Position numbers and translations under genes: made by a program. The notes beneath the pieces are model-generated. The model did no database searches, was not told the origin of the DNA, and worked only from the letters and a program-made list of their open reading frames with translations. Below, one piece after another: positions 1 to 28,986 of a stretch of 28,986 nucleotides of DNA. Each line of letters opens with the position of its first letter. The first letter of the stretch is position 1. Source of the stretch: a virus; IMG/VR virus record IMGVR_UViG_3300030412_000446, positions 1-28,986 of that record. One strand, written 5' to 3'.

Positions 1-53
1 TCGTACACGTCCATCATTGCATCTGATTTGTGTCCGGGAGTACCTTTTTTATC
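1..53 (-). pseudogene. Fragment of a second integrase 3' region (window edge)
   Basis: Read on the minus strand, positions 36 to 1 are identical base for base to plus-strand 12493-12528 inside the integrase gene. That stretch encodes the GHKS...MMDVYD motif with the catalytic tyrosine. Just upstream the frame reads DKKGTPGHKS, while the complete integrase reads DKQQASGHKS. Both are 24 bases long from GAT to CAC, so this may be a diverged allele. A stop lies four codons further upstream, so no full integrase feeds into it, and the rest runs off the window. It follows directly the stop of the GpZ-like gene. It could be a recombinant remnant, the edge of another prophage, or an assembly artefact. 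Confidence 0.5.
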
Positions 54-642
54 TGGCAGTTGCTAACGCTTTGTTTAAAGACTTACGCAGAGCTGGCTCA
101 AATTGCTTTTTAACCTCAGCTATCACGATCTCCTCGAATGGAAACCGCTTCTTGTAGGTTTGACTCTGAACAAACTTGATTAACAACTGTAAGCCTTTAC
201 GCTTTGACCTTTGCCAAACCCCATTAACACCATTAATTGTTGCAAGGAATGTATCAGGTCTAGTCAGTAGAGCGGCTATCTTCTTGCCATCTCTCATGCT
301 TGGTATATTGCCAAACTTGTTTAATCTTATTGCTGCTGGCTGAGCATAGCCTTTGCTGTATGTACCACCTTCAACTTGAGGCAAAAGGTATGCAGCCTGA
401 ATATCTTTGATGAATACAGACGCTGTTAAATTACGCTTTGACGATCTCGTTATAGCTACACCGCGAATAGTGAACGGTGTCGGCCTATCAAACCTTTTAA
501 CCATTTCACGCTGCACTGCTTTCTGTCCTAGCTTCGCCGTTTCATTTAAAGCAACTGACACGGCAAAAGGAATTTGTTTTGTTTGTATATCCGTTAGCTG
601 CTTTGTTAATTGCCTAATCTGTTCTTCAAACGAAACAGTCAC
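49..642 (-). CDS. Phage minor tail protein Z-like structural protein
   Basis: This 197-residue protein is basic and has an amphipathic N-terminal region rich in Gln and Lys. A KRFDRPTPFT segment is followed by SSKRNLTASVFIKD and then a Gly-rich stretch, a pattern I associate with prophage minor tail protein Z or neck-type proteins; this is a resemblance from memory. The start is GTG at 642, overlapping the holin stop in a TAGTG arrangement, so translation is probably coupled. In lambda the space after the lysis genes leads to terminase, so the position is unusual for a tail gene. Translation ends at TAA (49-51), immediately before the integrase-like fragment. Family assignment is moderate; a specific role in virion assembly is inferred. 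Confidence 0.5.
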   Translation of the reverse strand: MTVSFEEQIRQLTKQLTDIQTKQIPFAVSVALNETAKLGQKAVQREMVKRFDRPTPFTIRGVAITRSSKRNLTASVFIKDIQAAYLLPQVEGGTYSKGYAQPAAIRLNKFGNIPSMRDGKKIAALLTRPDTFLATINGVNGVWQRSKRKGLQLLIKFVQSQTYKKRFPFEEIVIAEVKKQFEPALRKSLNKALATAR

Positions 643-2297: not shown

Positions 2298-2717
2298 CTA
2301 ACTCCCTTGATTTCTGGTTTTGTTTATTTCTACCATCGCTCTATCTCGTGCGGCTCTCGCTCTGGCTTTTGCAATCGCCTCATCCTCAGCCGTTCCCTTT
2401 CTCAACGCCAACTGAGCCTCAACAGCGCTAATGAACGCGGGCAGCTCTGGTGGCAACAGATTGCCCCTCACAGCCTTAACCGCATCAAGCACAGCCGCGT
2501 CATCAAACCGAAACACAGCGCGCCGCCACTCAGCAGCCATCACCAACACACCCTCAGGTGACTGCAAACGCCGCTTCCATTCATCCTTCCACTTGCCATC
2601 GAACGAAGCAAAGACCGTATCAATCACCCCGAAACCCTTCGGCATCTTCAAAGACTTATCGACTTTACCTTTACCCAATCCAGCCATAGCCAATGCTTGC
2701 TCATGTCCACTTGCCAT
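2298..2717 (-). CDS. Replication protein P-like (helicase loader candidate)
   Basis: It directly follows the O-like initiator, sharing a base with its stop (TGATG), with a strong GGGAGGG ribosome site. ATG 2717 is preferred over the GTG one codon upstream. In the 139 residues, the segment VFASFDGKWKDEWKRRLQSP followed by an EWRRAVFRFDD region resembles phage replication protein P, which recruits and loads the host DnaB helicase at the phage origin. The C-terminus is Ala-, Arg- and Glu-rich and helical, and lies next to the PPELPAFISA turn. It is shorter than lambda P (about 230 residues), so the assignment rests partly on gene order. Confidence 0.6.
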   Translation of the reverse strand: MASGHEQALAMAGLGKGKVDKSLKMPKGFGVIDTVFASFDGKWKDEWKRRLQSPEGVLVMAAEWRRAVFRFDDAAVLDAVKAVRGNLLPPELPAFISAVEAQLALRKGTAEDEAIAKARARAARDRAMVEINKTRNQGS

Positions 2718-3784
2718 CACTCAGCCCTCCCACGTCTCAAGTTAGCCGGCAAACAATCTTTAAACGACCTTGCCGCCTGTTTATCCGCTTGCTTTTGTGC
2801 CTCTGTCTTGGGTGCATCAGCCTTTGTCACCACAGGTGTTTTAACTTCAAGGCATAGCCCTCGAAACTCAGCCGCATCAGCAGGCCAAGCATCACGCCAT
2901 CGTGATAAACCATAATTCAACTGGTTTTCAGTTAACCCAGCCAACGCCTTATCCCAAGCAGATACCAACGCATCACGCACCGTTTCCTCGCGTAGCTTTG
3001 AAAAAAACTTATTCTCATACCGCATAAAAGCCACAAAAACACGCTTAGTTGCTGAATCAGGCAAAGACTGAATAAACTCAATCACCTCAGCATTGGATGT
3101 TTTAGCGCTGCTTGTAGTTGGCTCAGTGCCAGATTGATGTTTAATAAACCGTACTTCCTGCCGTTTGCAATAGCGAACAAACTCAGTCGGCCAGTTCAAT
3201 GCTTTCCACTCTTTCGCAACATTGCTTGTTACAAACTCAACAATGCACCATTCAGCCAAATCGTTTTGAACACCTGCTTGCTGCATCGCCACACGAACAT
3301 CGTTGTCAATAGAAAATTGAGGATCGATTAATTCAGGTTTTCGCGCGCGCTGTGTAATGTGGTTAAGTGACTGGTTAAAAGAGTGACTGGTTATGGGTGC
3401 AGAATCTGCACTAGCTAGGGGTGCAGAATCTGCACCACCTAGTGCAGAATTTTCACCAGTAAAACTACGTAATGGTGCAGAATCTGCACTAGCAACTTCG
3501 CTGACTTTTTCACCATTATTGAGTGTCAAAAAATAGACATTTGAACTATTTTTACTCGCCGTATTACGTCTGATTTTTTTAGAAATCAACCCCATTTCTT
3601 CCAAATCAGAAATATGATTAATCGCAGAACGCCGAGACATTTCACAAGCCTCAGCAATATAGTCATAACTAGGGAAACACATCCCCTCATCATTGGCATT
3701 ATCAGCCAACTTCAACAACACCAGCTTCCTAGCCGGATTGCCCACCTTGCAGCCCATTGCACGAACCATCAGCATCATGCTCAT
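2717..3784 (-). CDS. Phage replication initiator, O-like, with winged-helix domain
   Basis: The 355-residue protein has an N-terminal helix-turn-helix (about residues 20-90: KLVLLKLADNANDEG, then YIAEACEMSRRSAINHISDL and the wing), as in phage O-type initiators that bind origin iterons. Residues 98-130 are low-complexity, with three ADSAP repeats and a fourth imperfect copy. These are encoded by the iteron-like palindromes inside the gene, the same nested arrangement as in lambda O. The C-terminal part, probably the contact to the P-like protein, is alpha-helical and ends in a basic tail (LPANLRRGRAE). The ATG at 3784 overlaps the preceding stop (TAATG). Family and role are well supported by domain, repeats and order. 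Confidence 0.85.
   Translation of the reverse strand: MSMMLMVRAMGCKVGNPARKLVLLKLADNANDEGMCFPSYDYIAEACEMSRRSAINHISDLEEMGLISKKIRRNTASKNSSNVYFLTLNNGEKVSEVASADSAPLRSFTGENSALGGADSAPLASADSAPITSHSFNQSLNHITQRARKPELIDPQFSIDNDVRVAMQQAGVQNDLAEWCIVEFVTSNVAKEWKALNWPTEFVRYCKRQEVRFIKHQSGTEPTTSSAKTSNAEVIEFIQSLPDSATKRVFVAFMRYENKFFSKLREETVRDALVSAWDKALAGLTENQLNYGLSRWRDAWPADAAEFRGLCLEVKTPVVTKADAPKTEAQKQADKQAARSFKDCLPANLRRGRAE
3397..3489. repeat. Iteron-like palindromes, candidate replication origin
   Basis: Three perfect copies of the 15-bp palindrome GTGCAGAATCTGCAC lie at 3397-3411, 3421-3435 and 3475-3489, plus a degenerate copy at 3442-3456. All lie inside the O-like gene. Next to them, GTGACTGGTTA occurs twice (3367-3377, 3383-3393). 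AT-rich DNA lies on the other side, around 3500-3640. Lambda's origin has the same structure: four symmetric iterons and an AT-rich stretch within gene O. Confidence 0.75.
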
Positions 3785-7829: not shown

Positions 7830-8225
7830 ATGATAACCAACCCATCAAAAATTCAATACGAATACAGAGGTAAATTGTACTTCGCCATTCAACTCGTAGA
7901 ACTTGCTGGCTGGGACCTGCCAAGGGGCAAAATGGGACGATTAGCCGCGAGCTTTAGATACCACGCTAAAAACAAAACAGTTGAACAAGCGTTTGAAATT
8001 ATGAAAAACGCTGATGAGCCACAAAGTAGAAGCCAAGTCATGGCTAAAACACGTAGCAAGCGTATCAGTACAGCTCATGAGAGCCACCAGACTTCATACA
8101 AATACGACATGTCCGATGATTTCAGTAAGTGGAATAAAGATTTAGAGCTGGAACGCTCAACAGAACAAAGATTGCAAATGGGCTGGAACGAAGAAGAACT
8201 AATAATCAAAGCAAGATTGATTTAA
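7830..8225 (+). CDS. Early protein, member A of a second paralogous pair
   Basis: This 131-residue basic protein begins IQYEYRGKLYFAIQLVELAG and contains a block of the form R..A..F.....NKTVEQAFEIMKNAD, followed by a charged linker and the C-terminal GWNEEELIIKARL. The gene at 8860-9237 has the same order: YEYKG, R..A....I...GIDKAMELMAKAE, then a linker and RGYKDPEIFIKLKN. I take the two as diverged paralogues. The N-terminal part resembles short DNA-binding AT-hook-like or helical-bundle proteins, but no family is recognised. No strong ribosome site precedes it. Confidence 0.6.
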   Translation: MITNPSKIQYEYRGKLYFAIQLVELAGWDLPRGKMGRLAASFRYHAKNKTVEQAFEIMKNADEPQSRSQVMAKTRSKRISTAHESHQTSYKYDMSDDFSKWNKDLELERSTEQRLQMGWNEEELIIKARLI

Positions 8226-8859: not shown

Positions 8860-9237
8860 ATGGCTGCTAACCAAACAAGATACTTCTTTGAGTACAAAGG
8901 CCAGCGCATGAGCGCCCGCGATCTTATCGACAGTCTAAATCGCGGCTGGGAAGGTCGAATAGCACGTGAAATGTCATCAAGATTAATCCGATTTATCAAA
9001 AACCACGGCATCGACAAAGCCATGGAGCTGATGGCTAAAGCCGAAGCGCCAGTGACCAAAGAAGTGTATTTAAGCGCACCGCCATTACGCTTCAACGACA
9101 AAGCCAAGCTAGACAGCTTTGATAAATATTTACACCTTAAAACAACAATAAAAAGCATGAGGAAACGCGGTTACAAAGACCCCGAAATATTCATCAAACT
9201 AAAAAACAGTGCAGTGTTGGAGGCTGCTAGATTATGA
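8860..9237 (+). CDS. Early protein, member B of the second paralogous pair
   Basis: This 125-residue basic protein begins RYFFEYKGQRMSARDLIDSL and continues with SSRLIRFIKNHGIDKAMELM and AKAEAP. Shared features with 7830-8225 are the aromatic EY[RK]G opening, the A/M-rich helix (NKTVEQAFEIM against HGIDKAMELM) and the G[WY]-acidic-II-K ending. The intervening sequences differ widely. The two may be retained as partners or specificity variants. The stop TGA overlaps the next ATG. Confidence 0.6.
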   Translation: MAANQTRYFFEYKGQRMSARDLIDSLNRGWEGRIAREMSSRLIRFIKNHGIDKAMELMAKAEAPVTKEVYLSAPPLRFNDKAKLDSFDKYLHLKTTIKSMRKRGYKDPEIFIKLKNSAVLEAARL

Positions 9238-10093: not shown

Positions 10094-10441
10094 ATGCTCA
10101 TCCTAACCAGACGAATAGGCGAAACCCTGATCATCAACGACAACATCATTGTCAATATTTTAGGCATCACTGGCGGTCAAGTTCGCATAGGTATCGACGC
10201 GCCGAAAGAAATCAGCATTCATCGTGAAGAAATAGCCGAGCGCATCAAAGCATGTGCGAAAGCGCCGCTTGACTTTGACCGGGTAACGATTGGCGAACGG
10301 GTTACAACCGACCACGGGCCCGCTGAAATAATCAAAAAACGTGAAAGCAATAAAACGGTACAAGTCAAAATGAAAAACGGCTTAAAAACATGGCTTGCTA
10401 TTCATAAAATTAAACCAGCTATGAAAAAGAAAGCGGCTTAA
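10094..10441 (+). CDS. csrA: Phage-encoded CsrA with C-terminal SH3-like extension
   Basis: Residues 1-47 are a nearly canonical CsrA/Rsm[17 protein letters not shown], then [20 protein letters not shown]. The RNA-contacting residues Leu4, Thr5, Arg6, Arg7 and Arg44 are all present. CsrA dimers bind GGA motifs in 5' leaders to control translation and stability. The usual length is about 60-65 residues; this one has 115. The extra part (about residues 60-110: [20 protein letters not shown] and [16 protein letters not shown]) looks like a small KOW/SH3 barrel with a basic tail. An AGGA site precedes the ATG. It may reprogramme host or phage translation; phage genes just upstream have GGA pairs at their starts. 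The CsrA fold is sure, the extension's role is not. Confidence 0.92.
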
Positions 10442-11213: not shown

Positions 11214-11420
11214 ATGCACGCTATGAACTCAAATATCCTAACCTTTGAAGAACTGCAAAAGCTCACCCATTGCGAGAGAATGGGTGACGTGCAGCGACAC
11301 CTTGAAAAAGACGGGATCAGATACTTTCACGGAAGAAAATCAATATGGACTACAATTTCACTAGTCAACGCAGCCGGTGGTATAGTTGGCGAACAACAGG
11401 ATAACCAGAGAATCTTGTAA
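11214..11420 (+). CDS. DUF4224 family protein upstream of integrase
   Basis: Starting at ATG 11214 (or 11223), the protein has about 68 residues and reads LTFEELQKLTHCERMGDVQR, then HLEKDGIRYFHGRKS. This is the small HTH-like pattern of DUF4224, a family typically found immediately before phage tyrosine integrases. Its stop overlaps the integrase ATG (TAATG). A role as an excisionase or recombination-directionality factor is plausible by position but not demonstrated. Confidence 0.72.
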   Translation: MHAMNSNILTFEELQKLTHCERMGDVQRHLEKDGIRYFHGRKSIWTTISLVNAAGGIVGEQQDNQRIL

Positions 11421-12565
11421 TGACTGAAACCCGTGGCCGAAAACGCAAATTCAACCCCAAAATACCAGCGCACATCAATCAAAACCAACTGCCTGATAAC
11501 TGCTATTTTGACCGTGACCGCTGGGTTGCCAGATATACGGACGAAACCGGCCGTAATCGTAAAGTAAAAATAGGTACAAGCAAAGCAACATTAGCAGAGC
11601 TTCATAAAGCTATCGAACAATTTAACGGCATCAAACACAACACGTTCGACTGGCTTTCTGATGCATTCATGCAATCAACCAAATTTCGCGAACTAAGTAT
11701 CGAGACGCAAAAAGATTATGATTATTGCAGCAGAATAGTATCAGCACACCCTACCCGATTAAATCAACCCCTTGGTAGTTTCAGCATAGATAAATGGGAC
11801 TCGCCATTGTGCCAAAACCTAATCGACCAAATCGCAGACGCACGCGGTAAATCATCAGCAAATCACGCGGCAAGATACATCAAGCGACTATTCAGGTGGG
11901 GAAAAAACAAAGGCTACGCCAAGATAAACCCAGCGCTAGGCATCGAGATGCAAAAAGAAGCGCCAAAGCAACAGCTAGTGACCGATGACGTATACACCCG
12001 CGTACTCAACTACGCGCGAGAATGTGGCAATCTAAAGCCAAAAACCCAAGGCAGCGCACCAGGTTATATATGGATAGTGTTAGAAATCGCCTATCTTTGC
12101 CGGTTACGTGGTATTGAAGTCGTGACGATCACAGAAGATATGATCCAAGAAGATGGCCTGAAATGTGTCAGACGAAAAGGTAGCCGCACCAATATCACAA
12201 CATTGAATAAGCGCCTAAAAAATGCACTAGATTCAGCGATAAAGATGCGTAACAAAGCATGGAAAGACAACAAAACACCAATCCCGCACAAACCAGAGCA
12301 CCGGCCTATCATCGTCAACGGCAGTGGTGAGGCGCTGATTAAATCAACATTTGACAGCGCATGGAAGCGATTAATTACCAAAGCAATAGAGCAAGGTATA
12401 ATCACACAACAAGAACGGTTCAGCCCGCACGATCTAAAGCGCAAAGGCACAACCGACACACAAGGAACGCGAGCAGATAAGCAACAGGCAAGCGGACACA
12501 AATCAGATGCAATGATGGACGTGTACGACAAGTCCATTGCTATTGTAAAACCAAGCGGGGAATAA
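11420..12565 (+). CDS. int: Tyrosine integrase
   Basis: The 381-residue phage site-specific recombinase has an N-terminal arm-binding region (about 1-70), a core-binding SAM-like domain (about 75-170) and a catalytic domain. Catalytic residues: Arg230 (CRLRGIEV), His337 in HDLKRKG, His360 in SGHKS, and nucleophile Tyr369 in MMDVYDKS. The third motif has Lys (HDLK) in place of the usual Arg, as in several phage integrases of this type. It should act on the tRNA-Asn core about 320 bp downstream. It is last but one in the PL operon, so it is expressed with the early genes and perhaps from its own promoter in lysogens. A 36-bp part of it recurs at the left window edge. Confidence 0.95.
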   Translation: MTETRGRKRKFNPKIPAHINQNQLPDNCYFDRDRWVARYTDETGRNRKVKIGTSKATLAELHKAIEQFNGIKHNTFDWLSDAFMQSTKFRELSIETQKDYDYCSRIVSAHPTRLNQPLGSFSIDKWDSPLCQNLIDQIADARGKSSANHAARYIKRLFRWGKNKGYAKINPALGIEMQKEAPKQQLVTDDVYTRVLNYARECGNLKPKTQGSAPGYIWIVLEIAYLCRLRGIEVVTITEDMIQEDGLKCVRRKGSRTNITTLNKRLKNALDSAIKMRNKAWKDNKTPIPHKPEHRPIIVNGSGEALIKSTFDSAWKRLITKAIEQGIITQQERFSPHDLKRKGTTDTQGTRADKQQASGHKSDAMMDVYDKSIAIVKPSGE

Positions 12566-12887: not shown

Positions 12888-12933
12888 ACTGTTAATCATT
12901 GGGTCGCTGGTTCGAGTCCAGCTCGGGGAGCCA
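12888..12933 (+). other. Attachment core: 3' part of tRNA-Asn (attP)
   Basis: These 46 bases correspond to the 3' part of a tRNA-Asn: anticodon loop with GTT, TCATT stem strand, GGTC variable loop, GCTGG/CCAGC T-arm with TTCGAGT, acceptor strand TCGGGGA, then G and CCA. There is no 5' half, so no tRNA is made from here. On integration the fragment would restore the host tRNA gene. The neighbouring integrase and repeats support its role as the strand-exchange core. Confidence 0.85.
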
Positions 12934-12943
12934 AGAATACCAA

Positions 12944-22534: not shown

Positions 22535-22870
22535 TTAAACCAGCCCCGCTTTACGTACTTTAATCATCACATCATCACTCACCGTATCACCGTTGCTGTC
22601 AACGCAGGTCAGTGTTACTTCATAATTCTCATCATCAGTGCCGCCGCCAATTTTGACGCTGACCTTTGTGCCGGATACCGCTTCATCATCAGCCGTAAGC
22701 GCATCATCCTCTGTCACCAAGCCTGCCGCCGTAACAACAGGCGCAGAGACAGAAGCCAAGGTCACGCCCGATGGCAATACGTTCTTAAAATCGATGGTGT
22801 AGGTTTTATCTTCTGCTGGTCGCTTAACCGCGTAAACCAGTTGAGAATCTGTATCAACTCTTGTTACCAT
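22535..22870 (-). CDS. Ig-like or adaptor-type structural protein
   Basis: The 111-residue beta-rich acidic protein has KTYTIDFKNVLPSGVTLASV, then APVVTAAGLVTEDDA and KVSVKIGGGTDDENYEVTLT. This resembles Ig-like domains attached to phage fibres or capsids (YjdB-like), or fibre adaptors. The ATG overlaps the repeat-protein gene by seven bases. It sits between fibre-like genes and the FII-like gene, in an unusual place for a fibre protein. The function is inferred. Confidence 0.55.
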   Translation of the reverse strand: MVTRVDTDSQLVYAVKRPAEDKTYTIDFKNVLPSGVTLASVSAPVVTAAGLVTEDDALTADDEAVSGTKVSVKIGGGTDDENYEVTLTCVDSNGDTVSDDVMIKVRKAGLV

Positions 22871-23640
22871 TTGCGAGTACCCGTTAAAGTAAGGTTGGTT
22901 GTTCTTGCTATAAGCGACAAATAAGACGCTCTGCTTTGCAAGCTGATTGGCACGCCATTTTCCAAATAAATTCCTTGAGTAACCAACCTAAACGCCGTAT
23001 TCGTTTCAACCGCCTGCCCAATCTGAGCACTAATGGCTTGCAGCAATGCACTTGCGGTATCAGTCTCGACCGCTTGGCTTATAGATAGCACTTTGCTTGA
23101 GCTAACATTAAAAGCACTATCTGTCTCGGTCGCCTGCGTAATAATCCGCAGTTTCAACGCTGTCACGCCGAATGCAGAACTAGTCTCTAATGCTTGCGTT
23201 ATTGCTAATGATTTGCTGCTTGATACGGCTTGTGATGTGTTAGCCTCACTCGCCCGCCCAATTGCCGTGCCACTGCTGACTGATACCGCTTGCGCCGTAT
23301 CGCTTTCAACTGCTTGAGTAATGCTTAGTGATTTGTTGCTTGATACTGATTGTGCTGTGCCCGCCTCAGTAGCTTGACCTATTGGCGTGCTACTGCTTGC
23401 TGTTACAGCCTGAGCGGTGTCAGACTCAACAGCCTGACTTATTTCAGCGGCCTTGCTTGCCGTGACTGCAAAAGCGCTGCCAGCCTCAACCGCTTGCCCG
23501 ATGACAGCCGACTTTCTCGAAGCGACCGAGAATACCGCTTCTGATTCTGTCGCTTGATTGATTTGGGCAGATACGTCCGACTCAGCTTCAGGAATACCGC
23601 CAATGGCGCGCTTGCCAATAGCAAATAAACCAATACTCAT
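22864..23640 (-). CDS. Structural protein with ten 20-residue tandem repeats
   Basis: The 258-residue protein has an N-terminal leader (MSIGLFAIGKRAIGGIPEAE), ten contiguous 20-residue repeats (residues 26-225; consensus about I.QA.E...A..V....) and a C-terminal 33-residue domain rich in Leu, Thr and Arg (SRASYLSLIARTTNLTLTGT). The repeats contain Ala, Ser, Thr and Gln with regular hydrophobic positions and few aromatic residues, so they probably form a beta-solenoid or trimeric fibre. It lies between capsid and head-tail genes, suggesting a head-associated fibre or decoration. No strong family recognition; the repeat itself is certain. Confidence 0.72.
   Translation of the reverse strand: MSIGLFAIGKRAIGGIPEAESDVSAQINQATESEAVFSVASRKSAVIGQAVEAGSAFAVTASKAAEISQAVESDTAQAVTASSSTPIGQATEAGTAQSVSSNKSLSITQAVESDTAQAVSVSSGTAIGRASEANTSQAVSSSKSLAITQALETSSAFGVTALKLRIITQATETDSAFNVSSSKVLSISQAVETDTASALLQAISAQIGQAVETNTAFRLVTQGIYLENGVPISLQSRASYLSLIARTTNLTLTGTRKW
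22966..23565 (-). repeat. 60-bp in-frame tandem repeats, ten copies
   Basis: Codons for conserved Ile sit at residues 27, 47, 67 and so on to 207, an exact 20-codon period. Copies differ at many third positions, so they are diverged but of constant length. The periodicity is protein-level; I see no CRISPR-type spacer structure. Confidence 0.92.
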
Positions 23641-28125: not shown

Positions 28126-28281
28126 TTAGATGTTGATATGCACAAGCATCAAAAAGGTAAGAGCCCAAAAAAACAGAAGAAAACAACAGTAAATATCTTC
28201 CTCCCATCTCTTACTATGGCTTGCCGACCCATTCTTTTTTGCAAGCCATTCCACAAATATTCTAAGTGGCTTTATTCTCAT
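28126..28281 (-). CDS. Small membrane protein between portal and protease-capsid genes
   Basis: This 51-residue frame starts with ATG overlapping the portal stop (ATGA), after GGAGAGG. It begins MRIKPLRIFVEWLAKKNGSA and ends with a hydrophobic segment (CCFLLFFWALTFLMLVHINI) that predicts one membrane pass near the C-terminus. No family recognised. Its coupling and ribosome site are good evidence of expression. A membrane protein here is unexpected in a head operon, so either an accessory function or lysis/entry role should be kept open. Confidence 0.62.
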   Translation of the reverse strand: MRIKPLRIFVEWLAKKNGSASHSKRWEEDIYCCFLLFFWALTFLMLVHINI

Positions 28282-28986
28282 TTATCCTCTCCATCATCTT
28301 TGACTTCACCAAATATCAAATCAGGAATTGTGCTGTCATATTTTGGGTCGGTGGTAAACACCAGTTTGTCTTTATCAGCCTGATCACGCCATTCTTTGAT
28401 TTCAGACATCACCTGCTTAGGATTGCCACCCCGCTCGCGAATACTTTGTTGTGCTGACTTATGACCGGCGCGTTCTGCACGTTCTAGTGCTTTTTCTTCT
28501 TTATCGGGATCAATCCACGGCATCACAGGTCCGCGAGCATCCACATCGTATAATGTGGTTATGTCAATATTGCTAGGCAACTTTAACTGTCCGGACAATA
28601 CCGCCATCGCTAACATGCGCTCATAGACTGGAATAGTCACTTGGCTTGCAAATAGGTTTGATAGTGATTTATTACTCACATACCCTTCCACCAGTTCTTG
28701 ACGTTGGGCTGAGTAAGTGCCGTCATATTTTTTAGCAACGCCTGAAAATGTCACGGCGCGAACCGACGACACTGCCATGCGCACCATAGAATCTCTAAAC
28801 CCTTCGAGCAGTGCTGATGGCCGGTTACTATCGACCATGCCGATGGTTTCGCCGGGCCCTAGATTATCGAAGATAGTGCCGGGCTTAACTTTGAATGTGC
28901 GATCTTCTGAGCCCTCATCTGGCGCAACATATTCATCCGGCGTACCCTTTTGAATAAATGCACACATTGCTGCTGCAATCCGAGCA
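28278..28986 (-). CDS. Portal protein, C-terminal part (lambda B-like, truncated by window edge)
   Basis: The frame is open at the right window edge, so the start is not in the window; about 235 residues are visible, compared with about 530 in lambda gpB. Visible motifs: ARIAAAMCAF, then GTIFDNLGPGETIGMVDSNR and the AQRQELVEGYVSNKSL segment, with the C-terminal acidic tail (FGEVKDDGEDK). This matches the lambda-type portal (PF05136). It forms the dodecameric DNA channel at the capsid vertex. It precedes the protease-capsid fusion, as in lambda (B, C, E). Confidence 0.88.
   Translation of the reverse strand, partial: ARIAAAMCAFIQKGTPDEYVAPDEGSEDRTFKVKPGTIFDNLGPGETIGMVDSNRPSALLEGFRDSMVRMAVSSVRAVTFSGVAKKYDGTYSAQRQELVEGYVSNKSLSNLFASQVTIPVYERMLAMAVLSGQLKLPSNIDITTLYDVDARGPVMPWIDPDKEEKALERAERAGHKSAQQSIRERGGNPKQVMSEIKEWRDQADKDKLVFTTDPKYDSTIPDLIFGEVKDDGEDK

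What the first reader, a model, noticed from the sequence alone, without database searches (positions are those of the whole stretch)
1..53. 36-bp exact inverted copy of an integrase segment at the left end
Minus-strand 36-1 equals plus-strand 12493-12528, the stretch encoding the catalytic tyrosine region. The upstream codons differ (DKKGTP against DKQQAS), so it may be a remnant of a related integrase. It sits where terminase should be expected. The two copies are inverted relative to each other, so recombination between them could invert the whole regulatory half. Alternatively it is an assembly join at a shared k-mer.
Basis: partly seen in the sequence, partly recalled or inferred. Interest (0 to 1): 0.6.

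Follow-up and report, generated by a model that had tools for sequence, protein, structure and literature searches.

The report
Chimeric contig tip at phage end
The 36-base piece of integrase gene at the left end of this phage record is almost certainly a stray bit of misjoined DNA stuck onto the natural end of the phage chromosome during sample preparation or assembly, not a gene remnant or an inversion switch.

Summary
In detail: minus 36-1 equals plus 12493-12528, exactly. The record is a whole linear 28,986-bp IMG/VR contig, so base 1 is a true contig end. The sequence just inside the copy is not integrase. It is the stop codon of a minor tail gene followed by AAAAAAGGTACTCCCGG, a lambda cosQ-like element. 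An independent phage (L188) has the same 18-mer right after its own tail gene and continues into a normal cohesive-end site (GCGGGTAATTCG) and terminase. Relatives' contigs end at this place again and again: 24 of 54 ends lie 30-100 bp past the tail gene (0.4 expected), and 20 end 37-41 nt past cosQ. RcCronus, with published 13-base cohesive ends, ends at 38. The window ends 44 nt past cosQ but has the integrase copy where cosN belongs. The join is inverted, abrupt and has 3-nt microhomology (CGG), the signature of amplification chimeras. None of 234 other contig ends has such a distant inverted copy, but three other tips near cos carry junk. Best reading: a technical chimera at the virion terminus. 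Integrase-remnant and invertible-switch readings are not supported. Reads were not available, so a rare in vivo rearrangement cannot be strictly excluded.

The parts
1..36 (-). 36-nt exact inverted copy of the integrase 3' region at the contig tip; most likely chimeric, occupying the place of cosN
34..36 (-). CGG shared by the cosQ-like element and the integrase: likely microhomology at the join
   Evidence: native CCCGG is shown by L188; integrase reads AAGCGGACAC
34..44 (-). cosQ-like element GGTACTCCCGG
   Evidence: identical 18-mer TAAAAAAGGTACTCCCGG after the tail gene of L188; family alignment
49..642 (-). minor tail protein gene, the last gene before cos in relatives
   Evidence: phrog_1924 E=1e-44; 38% identical to RcCronus minor tail, whose record ends 66 bp after its stop
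12493..12528 (+). source of the copy: integrase codons GHKSDAMMDVYD, including the catalytic Tyr
11420..12565 (+). intact tyrosine integrase, 381 aa
   Evidence: phrog_1 E=4e-32, PF00589 E=6e-6
12909..12933 (+). candidate attP core (tRNA 3' end, resembles tRNA-Asn), single copy with phage genes on both sides
28278..28986 (-). portal gene, truncated by the right contig end; cosN, terS, terL and the portal N-terminus are missing from the record
   Evidence: PF05136, phrog_537; gene order in L003 and L014

Best explanation
The window is a nearly complete genome of a temperate siphovirus-like phage with lambda-type cohesive-end packaging, assembled from free phage DNA. Its left end is the right-hand terminus of virion DNA (tail gene, cosQ, then cosN). 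In sample amplification, library preparation or assembly, the 3' end running off this terminus was joined, through a CGG microhomology just before cosN, to the opposite-strand integrase gene 12.5 kb away and extended. The assembler kept the first 36 bases of that chimera as the contig tip. Shown: the exact copy, the cosQ context, relatives' contig ends clustering at cos, and absence of the copy elsewhere. Inferred: that the join is technical, and by which step (an MDA-type template switch is the best fit).
For: Position 1 is a true contig end. The 18-mer TAAAAAAGGTACTCCCGG also follows the tail gene in L188, where it runs on into GCCTTGCTCGTTTGCGGGTAATTCG and then terS and terL. L016 has TAAAAAAGGTACTTTCTGG then ACACGGGTAATG. 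In relatives 24 of 54 downstream contig ends lie 30-100 bp past this gene against 0.38 expected; 20 end 37-41 nt past cosQ. RcCronus, RcRhea and RcSaxon have published 13-base 5' overhangs (PMC4882933, PMC8601537) and the RcCronus and RcSaxon records end right there. Contigs also start at cosN on the terminase side, e.g. L095 against intact L094. The join is inverted and intramolecular with CGG microhomology; in MDA 85% of chimeras are inverted and about 77% have microhomology of at least 2 nt (PMC1855051). Other tips near cos carry junk: Illumina adapter in L055, CT-rich tails in L155 (native sister L184) and L153.
Against: No reads or library metadata were available, so the technical origin is inferred. 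None of 234 other contig ends shows a distal inverted copy, so this kind of tip is rare. The contig ends 44 nt past cosQ, close to the 37-41 nt of genuine virion ends, which a random chimera would match only by luck. The two joined places are 12.5 kb apart, while most inverted MDA chimeras join places under 10 kb apart.
Confidence: 0.87

Rival explanations
1. A real but minor rearranged phage molecule: in infected cells, template switching at a DNA end produced an inverted join, and this form was sequenced.
For: The join has the form (inverted, microhomology) that template switching in cells also gives (general knowledge; for the junction).
Against: It would lack cosN and could not be packaged as a normal genome; no relative shows it; the contig stops after 36 nt.
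Confidence: 0.06
2. Pure assembly misjoin at a pre-existing shared k-mer, without any chimeric molecule.
For: The copy sits exactly at a contig end, where assemblers stop at shared k-mers.
Against: Native DNA (cosQ, as in L188) and integrase share only CGG at the join as far as can be inferred, far below any k; a shared k-mer would itself need explaining.
Confidence: 0.03
3. The copy is genuine: this phage's cohesive-end region really contains a 36-bp copy of its integrase gene.
For: The contig ends 44 nt past cosQ, near the 37-41 nt of true virion ends.
Against: No cosN consensus (GGGTNATTCGC type) in the copy, while it is present in the well-aligned relatives; exact identity would need a very recent duplication.
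Confidence: 0.02
4. Remnant of a related integrase gene left of the tail gene.
For: Open frame of a few codons (DKKGTPGHKSDAMMDVY) resembling the integrase.
Against: A TAG four codons upstream; the upstream bases are the tail-gene stop plus cosQ shared with L016 and L188; the copy is 100% identical at synonymous sites while the adjacent 13 bases match at chance level.
Confidence: 0.01

Closest known systems
Multiple-displacement-amplification chimeras (Lasken and Stockwell 2007, PMC1855051)
   Same: inverted join of two places on one molecule, short microhomology, deletion between them
   Different: not known that this sample was amplified; the two places are 12.5 kb apart while most inverted MDA chimeras span under 10 kb; only 36 nt of the second part is kept
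Lambda-type cos sites (cosQ-cosN-cosB); Cronusvirus RcCronus with 13-base 5' overhangs
   Same: minor tail gene last, then a cosQ-like element about 25 nt before cosN, then small and large terminase and portal
   Different: the window breaks off after cosQ; its cosN and terminase genes are not in the record
Library-tail artefacts at contig ends (Illumina adapter; low-complexity tail of single-strand library kits, PMC6612421)
   Same: non-phage sequence attached at the fixed virion end in L055, L155 and L153
   Different: here the attached piece is the phage's own integrase sequence

Membership tests
Amplification or library chimera | two places joined that are not adjacent in the genome | tested here: met
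   relatives continue from cosQ into cosN, never integrase
Amplification or library chimera | inverted orientation with short microhomology at the join | tested here: met
   inverted; CGG shared
Amplification or library chimera | join supported by few or duplicate reads only | not testable with these tools
   no reads available
Lambda-type cos phage terminus | cosQ-like element after the last late gene | tested here: met
   GGTACTCCCGG after the minor tail gene; identical 18-mer in L188
Lambda-type cos phage terminus | cosN about 23-26 nt after cosQ | tested here: not met
   replaced by the integrase copy in this record
Lambda-type cos phage terminus | small and large terminase downstream | not testable with these tools
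   the contig ends before them; present in L003, L014, L016 and L188
Integrase gene remnant | homology extends in frame beyond the identical 36 bp | tested here: not met
   4 of 13 adjacent bases match; in-frame TAG upstream
Invertible segment between inverted repeats | both repeats present inside the genome, with the inversion or repeat seen in relatives | tested here: not met
   the repeat exists only at the contig tip; no match of 26 or more of 35 bases found in any other fetched locus and no exact match in IMG/VR

The most novel reading that the evidence does not exclude
The copy is real and the phage's own packaging end has been rebuilt from a piece of its integrase gene, so that terminase might recognise a second, cos-like place inside the integrase gene.
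Probability: 0.02. Interest if true: 0.5.

Novelty: not a real feature. Interest (0 to 1): 0.1.

Why it matters
It warns that the tips of viral metagenome contigs, which for cos phages often coincide with the physical ends of virion DNA, can carry chimeric or adapter-like bases. A short terminal inverted repeat with an internal gene should not be read as a gene remnant or inversion switch without reads. The same clustering of contig ends just past cosQ gives a simple way to read cohesive-end sequences directly from metagenome contigs.

Tried and rejected
Exact search of IMG/VR for 35 of the 36 bases: no hits. Integrase relatives in IMG/VR: one distant locus, and one 55% relative in the L003 record; neither was seen to have a copy at cos. 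Near-identical phages in the phage collection: none except the att/tRNA stretch. First genome-contig scan with the single tail protein: no relatives; a second scan with an alignment gave 80, several with an intact cosQ-cosN after the tail gene. Literature on contig-end chimeras in viromes: nothing direct. The possibility that ACGTG in the tip copies RcCronus's nick context was considered and dropped: it lies 40 nt instead of about 26 nt from cosQ, and a 5-base match is unremarkable.

Full report
Check of the observation. The minus strand of 36-1 is identical to plus 12493-12528; for one fixed contig tip about 1e-17 such matches are expected by chance. The plus copy lies in a 381-aa tyrosine integrase (PF00589, phrog_1) and encodes GHKSDAMMDVYD. 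The window is the entire virus record, classed linear, so base 1 is a contig end.

What lies next to the copy. They are not: the frame has a TAG four codons upstream, and the bases are the TAA stop of the gene 49-642 (minor tail protein, phrog_1924, E=1e-44) followed by AAAAAGGTACTCCCGG. In the Cronusvirus phages this minor tail gene is the last gene of the chromosome: RcCronus and RcSaxon records stop 66 bp after its stop codon, and papers report 13-base 5' cohesive ends for this group (PMC4882933; PMC8601537). The stretch after the gene in relatives has a lambda cosQ-like GGGTCCTTCC or GGTACT element, then a cosN of the type CACGGGTNATTCGC about 25 nt later, then terS, terL and portal. cosQ, cosN and cosB as subsites of lambda cos: PMC4669245.

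The direct comparison. A scan for TAAAAAAGGTACTCCCGG in IMG/VR found L188, a different phage in which the same 18-mer directly follows its own minor tail gene and runs on into GCCTTGCTCGTTTGCGGGTAATTCGAAGC, then terS and terL. L016, another relative, has TAAAAAAGGTACTTTCTGGCGGTTTGTGTACACGGGTAATG. So the window's sequence is native phage cosQ through CCCGG and then switches abruptly to integrase; CGG is common to both sides. Several chromosomal relatives likewise go from cosQ into cosN.

Contig ends at virion ends. Of 54 true contig ends downstream of this gene in IMG/VR relatives, 24 lie 30-100 bp past it, against 0.38 expected if spread over 10 kb (the records are related, so not all independent). 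Twenty tips end 37-41 nt after cosQ, on the overhang sequence itself (for example ...CGTGGGTTATTCGCGAC), RcCronus at 38. On the terminase side contigs begin at the overhang too (L095 against intact L094, L046 against L036). The window ends 44 nt after cosQ but has no cosN. A single candidate att core at 12909, flanked by phage genes on both sides, fits an unintegrated template.

Artefact control. Among 234 other true contig ends, none has a distal inverted self-copy anchored at its end within the stretch held; L013 has a local 22-nt hairpin and four ends lie in direct repeats. But three tips at or near cos carry foreign bases: L055 begins with Illumina adapter AGACGTGTGCTCTTCCGATCT, L155 departs from its sister L184 at the cosN nick into TCTTTCTTCTCTCTCACCC, and L153 ends in CTCTCCTTTCCT. 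The CT-rich tails may be the low-complexity tail of single-strand library kits (kit tail mentioned in PMC6612421; the assignment is my inference). So fixed virion ends are places where preparation artefacts enter contigs. Inverted joins with 2-21 nt microhomology are the typical product of multiple displacement amplification (PMC1855051).

Mechanism, with status. Shown: exact copy; native cosQ next to it; cosN replaced; contig ends cluster here in relatives; no fetched relative has the copy. Inferred: a 3' end at the virion terminus, perhaps trimmed by about 15 nt, paired through CGG with the opposite strand of the integrase gene and was extended; the assembler kept 36 nt. Not determined: whether the step was amplification, PCR or end repair.

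Verdict. An ordinary technical artefact at a biologically meaningful place. Points that do not fit smoothly: the tip ends at nearly the length of a real virion end (44 against 37-41 nt), and such tips are rare. The read mapping named in the next steps would settle it.

Noticed in passing
3397-3489: Three perfect and one imperfect copy of the palindrome GTGCAGAATCTGCAC inside the replication-initiation (O-like) gene 2717-3784; 0.08 expected by chance. Looks like lambda-style origin iterons inside the O gene.
   Followed up: partly
10094-10441: Phage-encoded CsrA (PF02599, E=2e-22) with a C-terminal extension of about 60 aa that has no CsrA match.
   Followed up: partly
22864-23640: 258-aa structural-region protein made of about ten imperfect repeats (SITQAVESDTAQAVTASS type); no Pfam match.
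   Followed up: no
7830-8225 and 8860-9237: Two nearby ORFs that look like paralogues (EYRGKLYFAIQLVELAGWD... and EYKGQRMSARDLIDSLNRGWE...), judged by eye.
   Followed up: no
12898-12934: Candidate attP core equal to a tRNA 3' end (tRNA-Asn-like by comparison with E. coli), in one copy, about 330 bp after the integrase gene.
   Followed up: partly
L055 start; L155 end; L153 end: Public virus contigs whose tips at or near cos carry an Illumina adapter (L055) or CT-rich junk (L155, L153).
   Followed up: yes
L121, L128, L130, L135, L167, L174, L184 and others, contig ends: Many IMG/VR contigs end on the cohesive-end sequence itself (e.g. GGGTTATTCGCGAC), so virion ends of uncultured cos phages can be read from contig ends.
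   Followed up: yes
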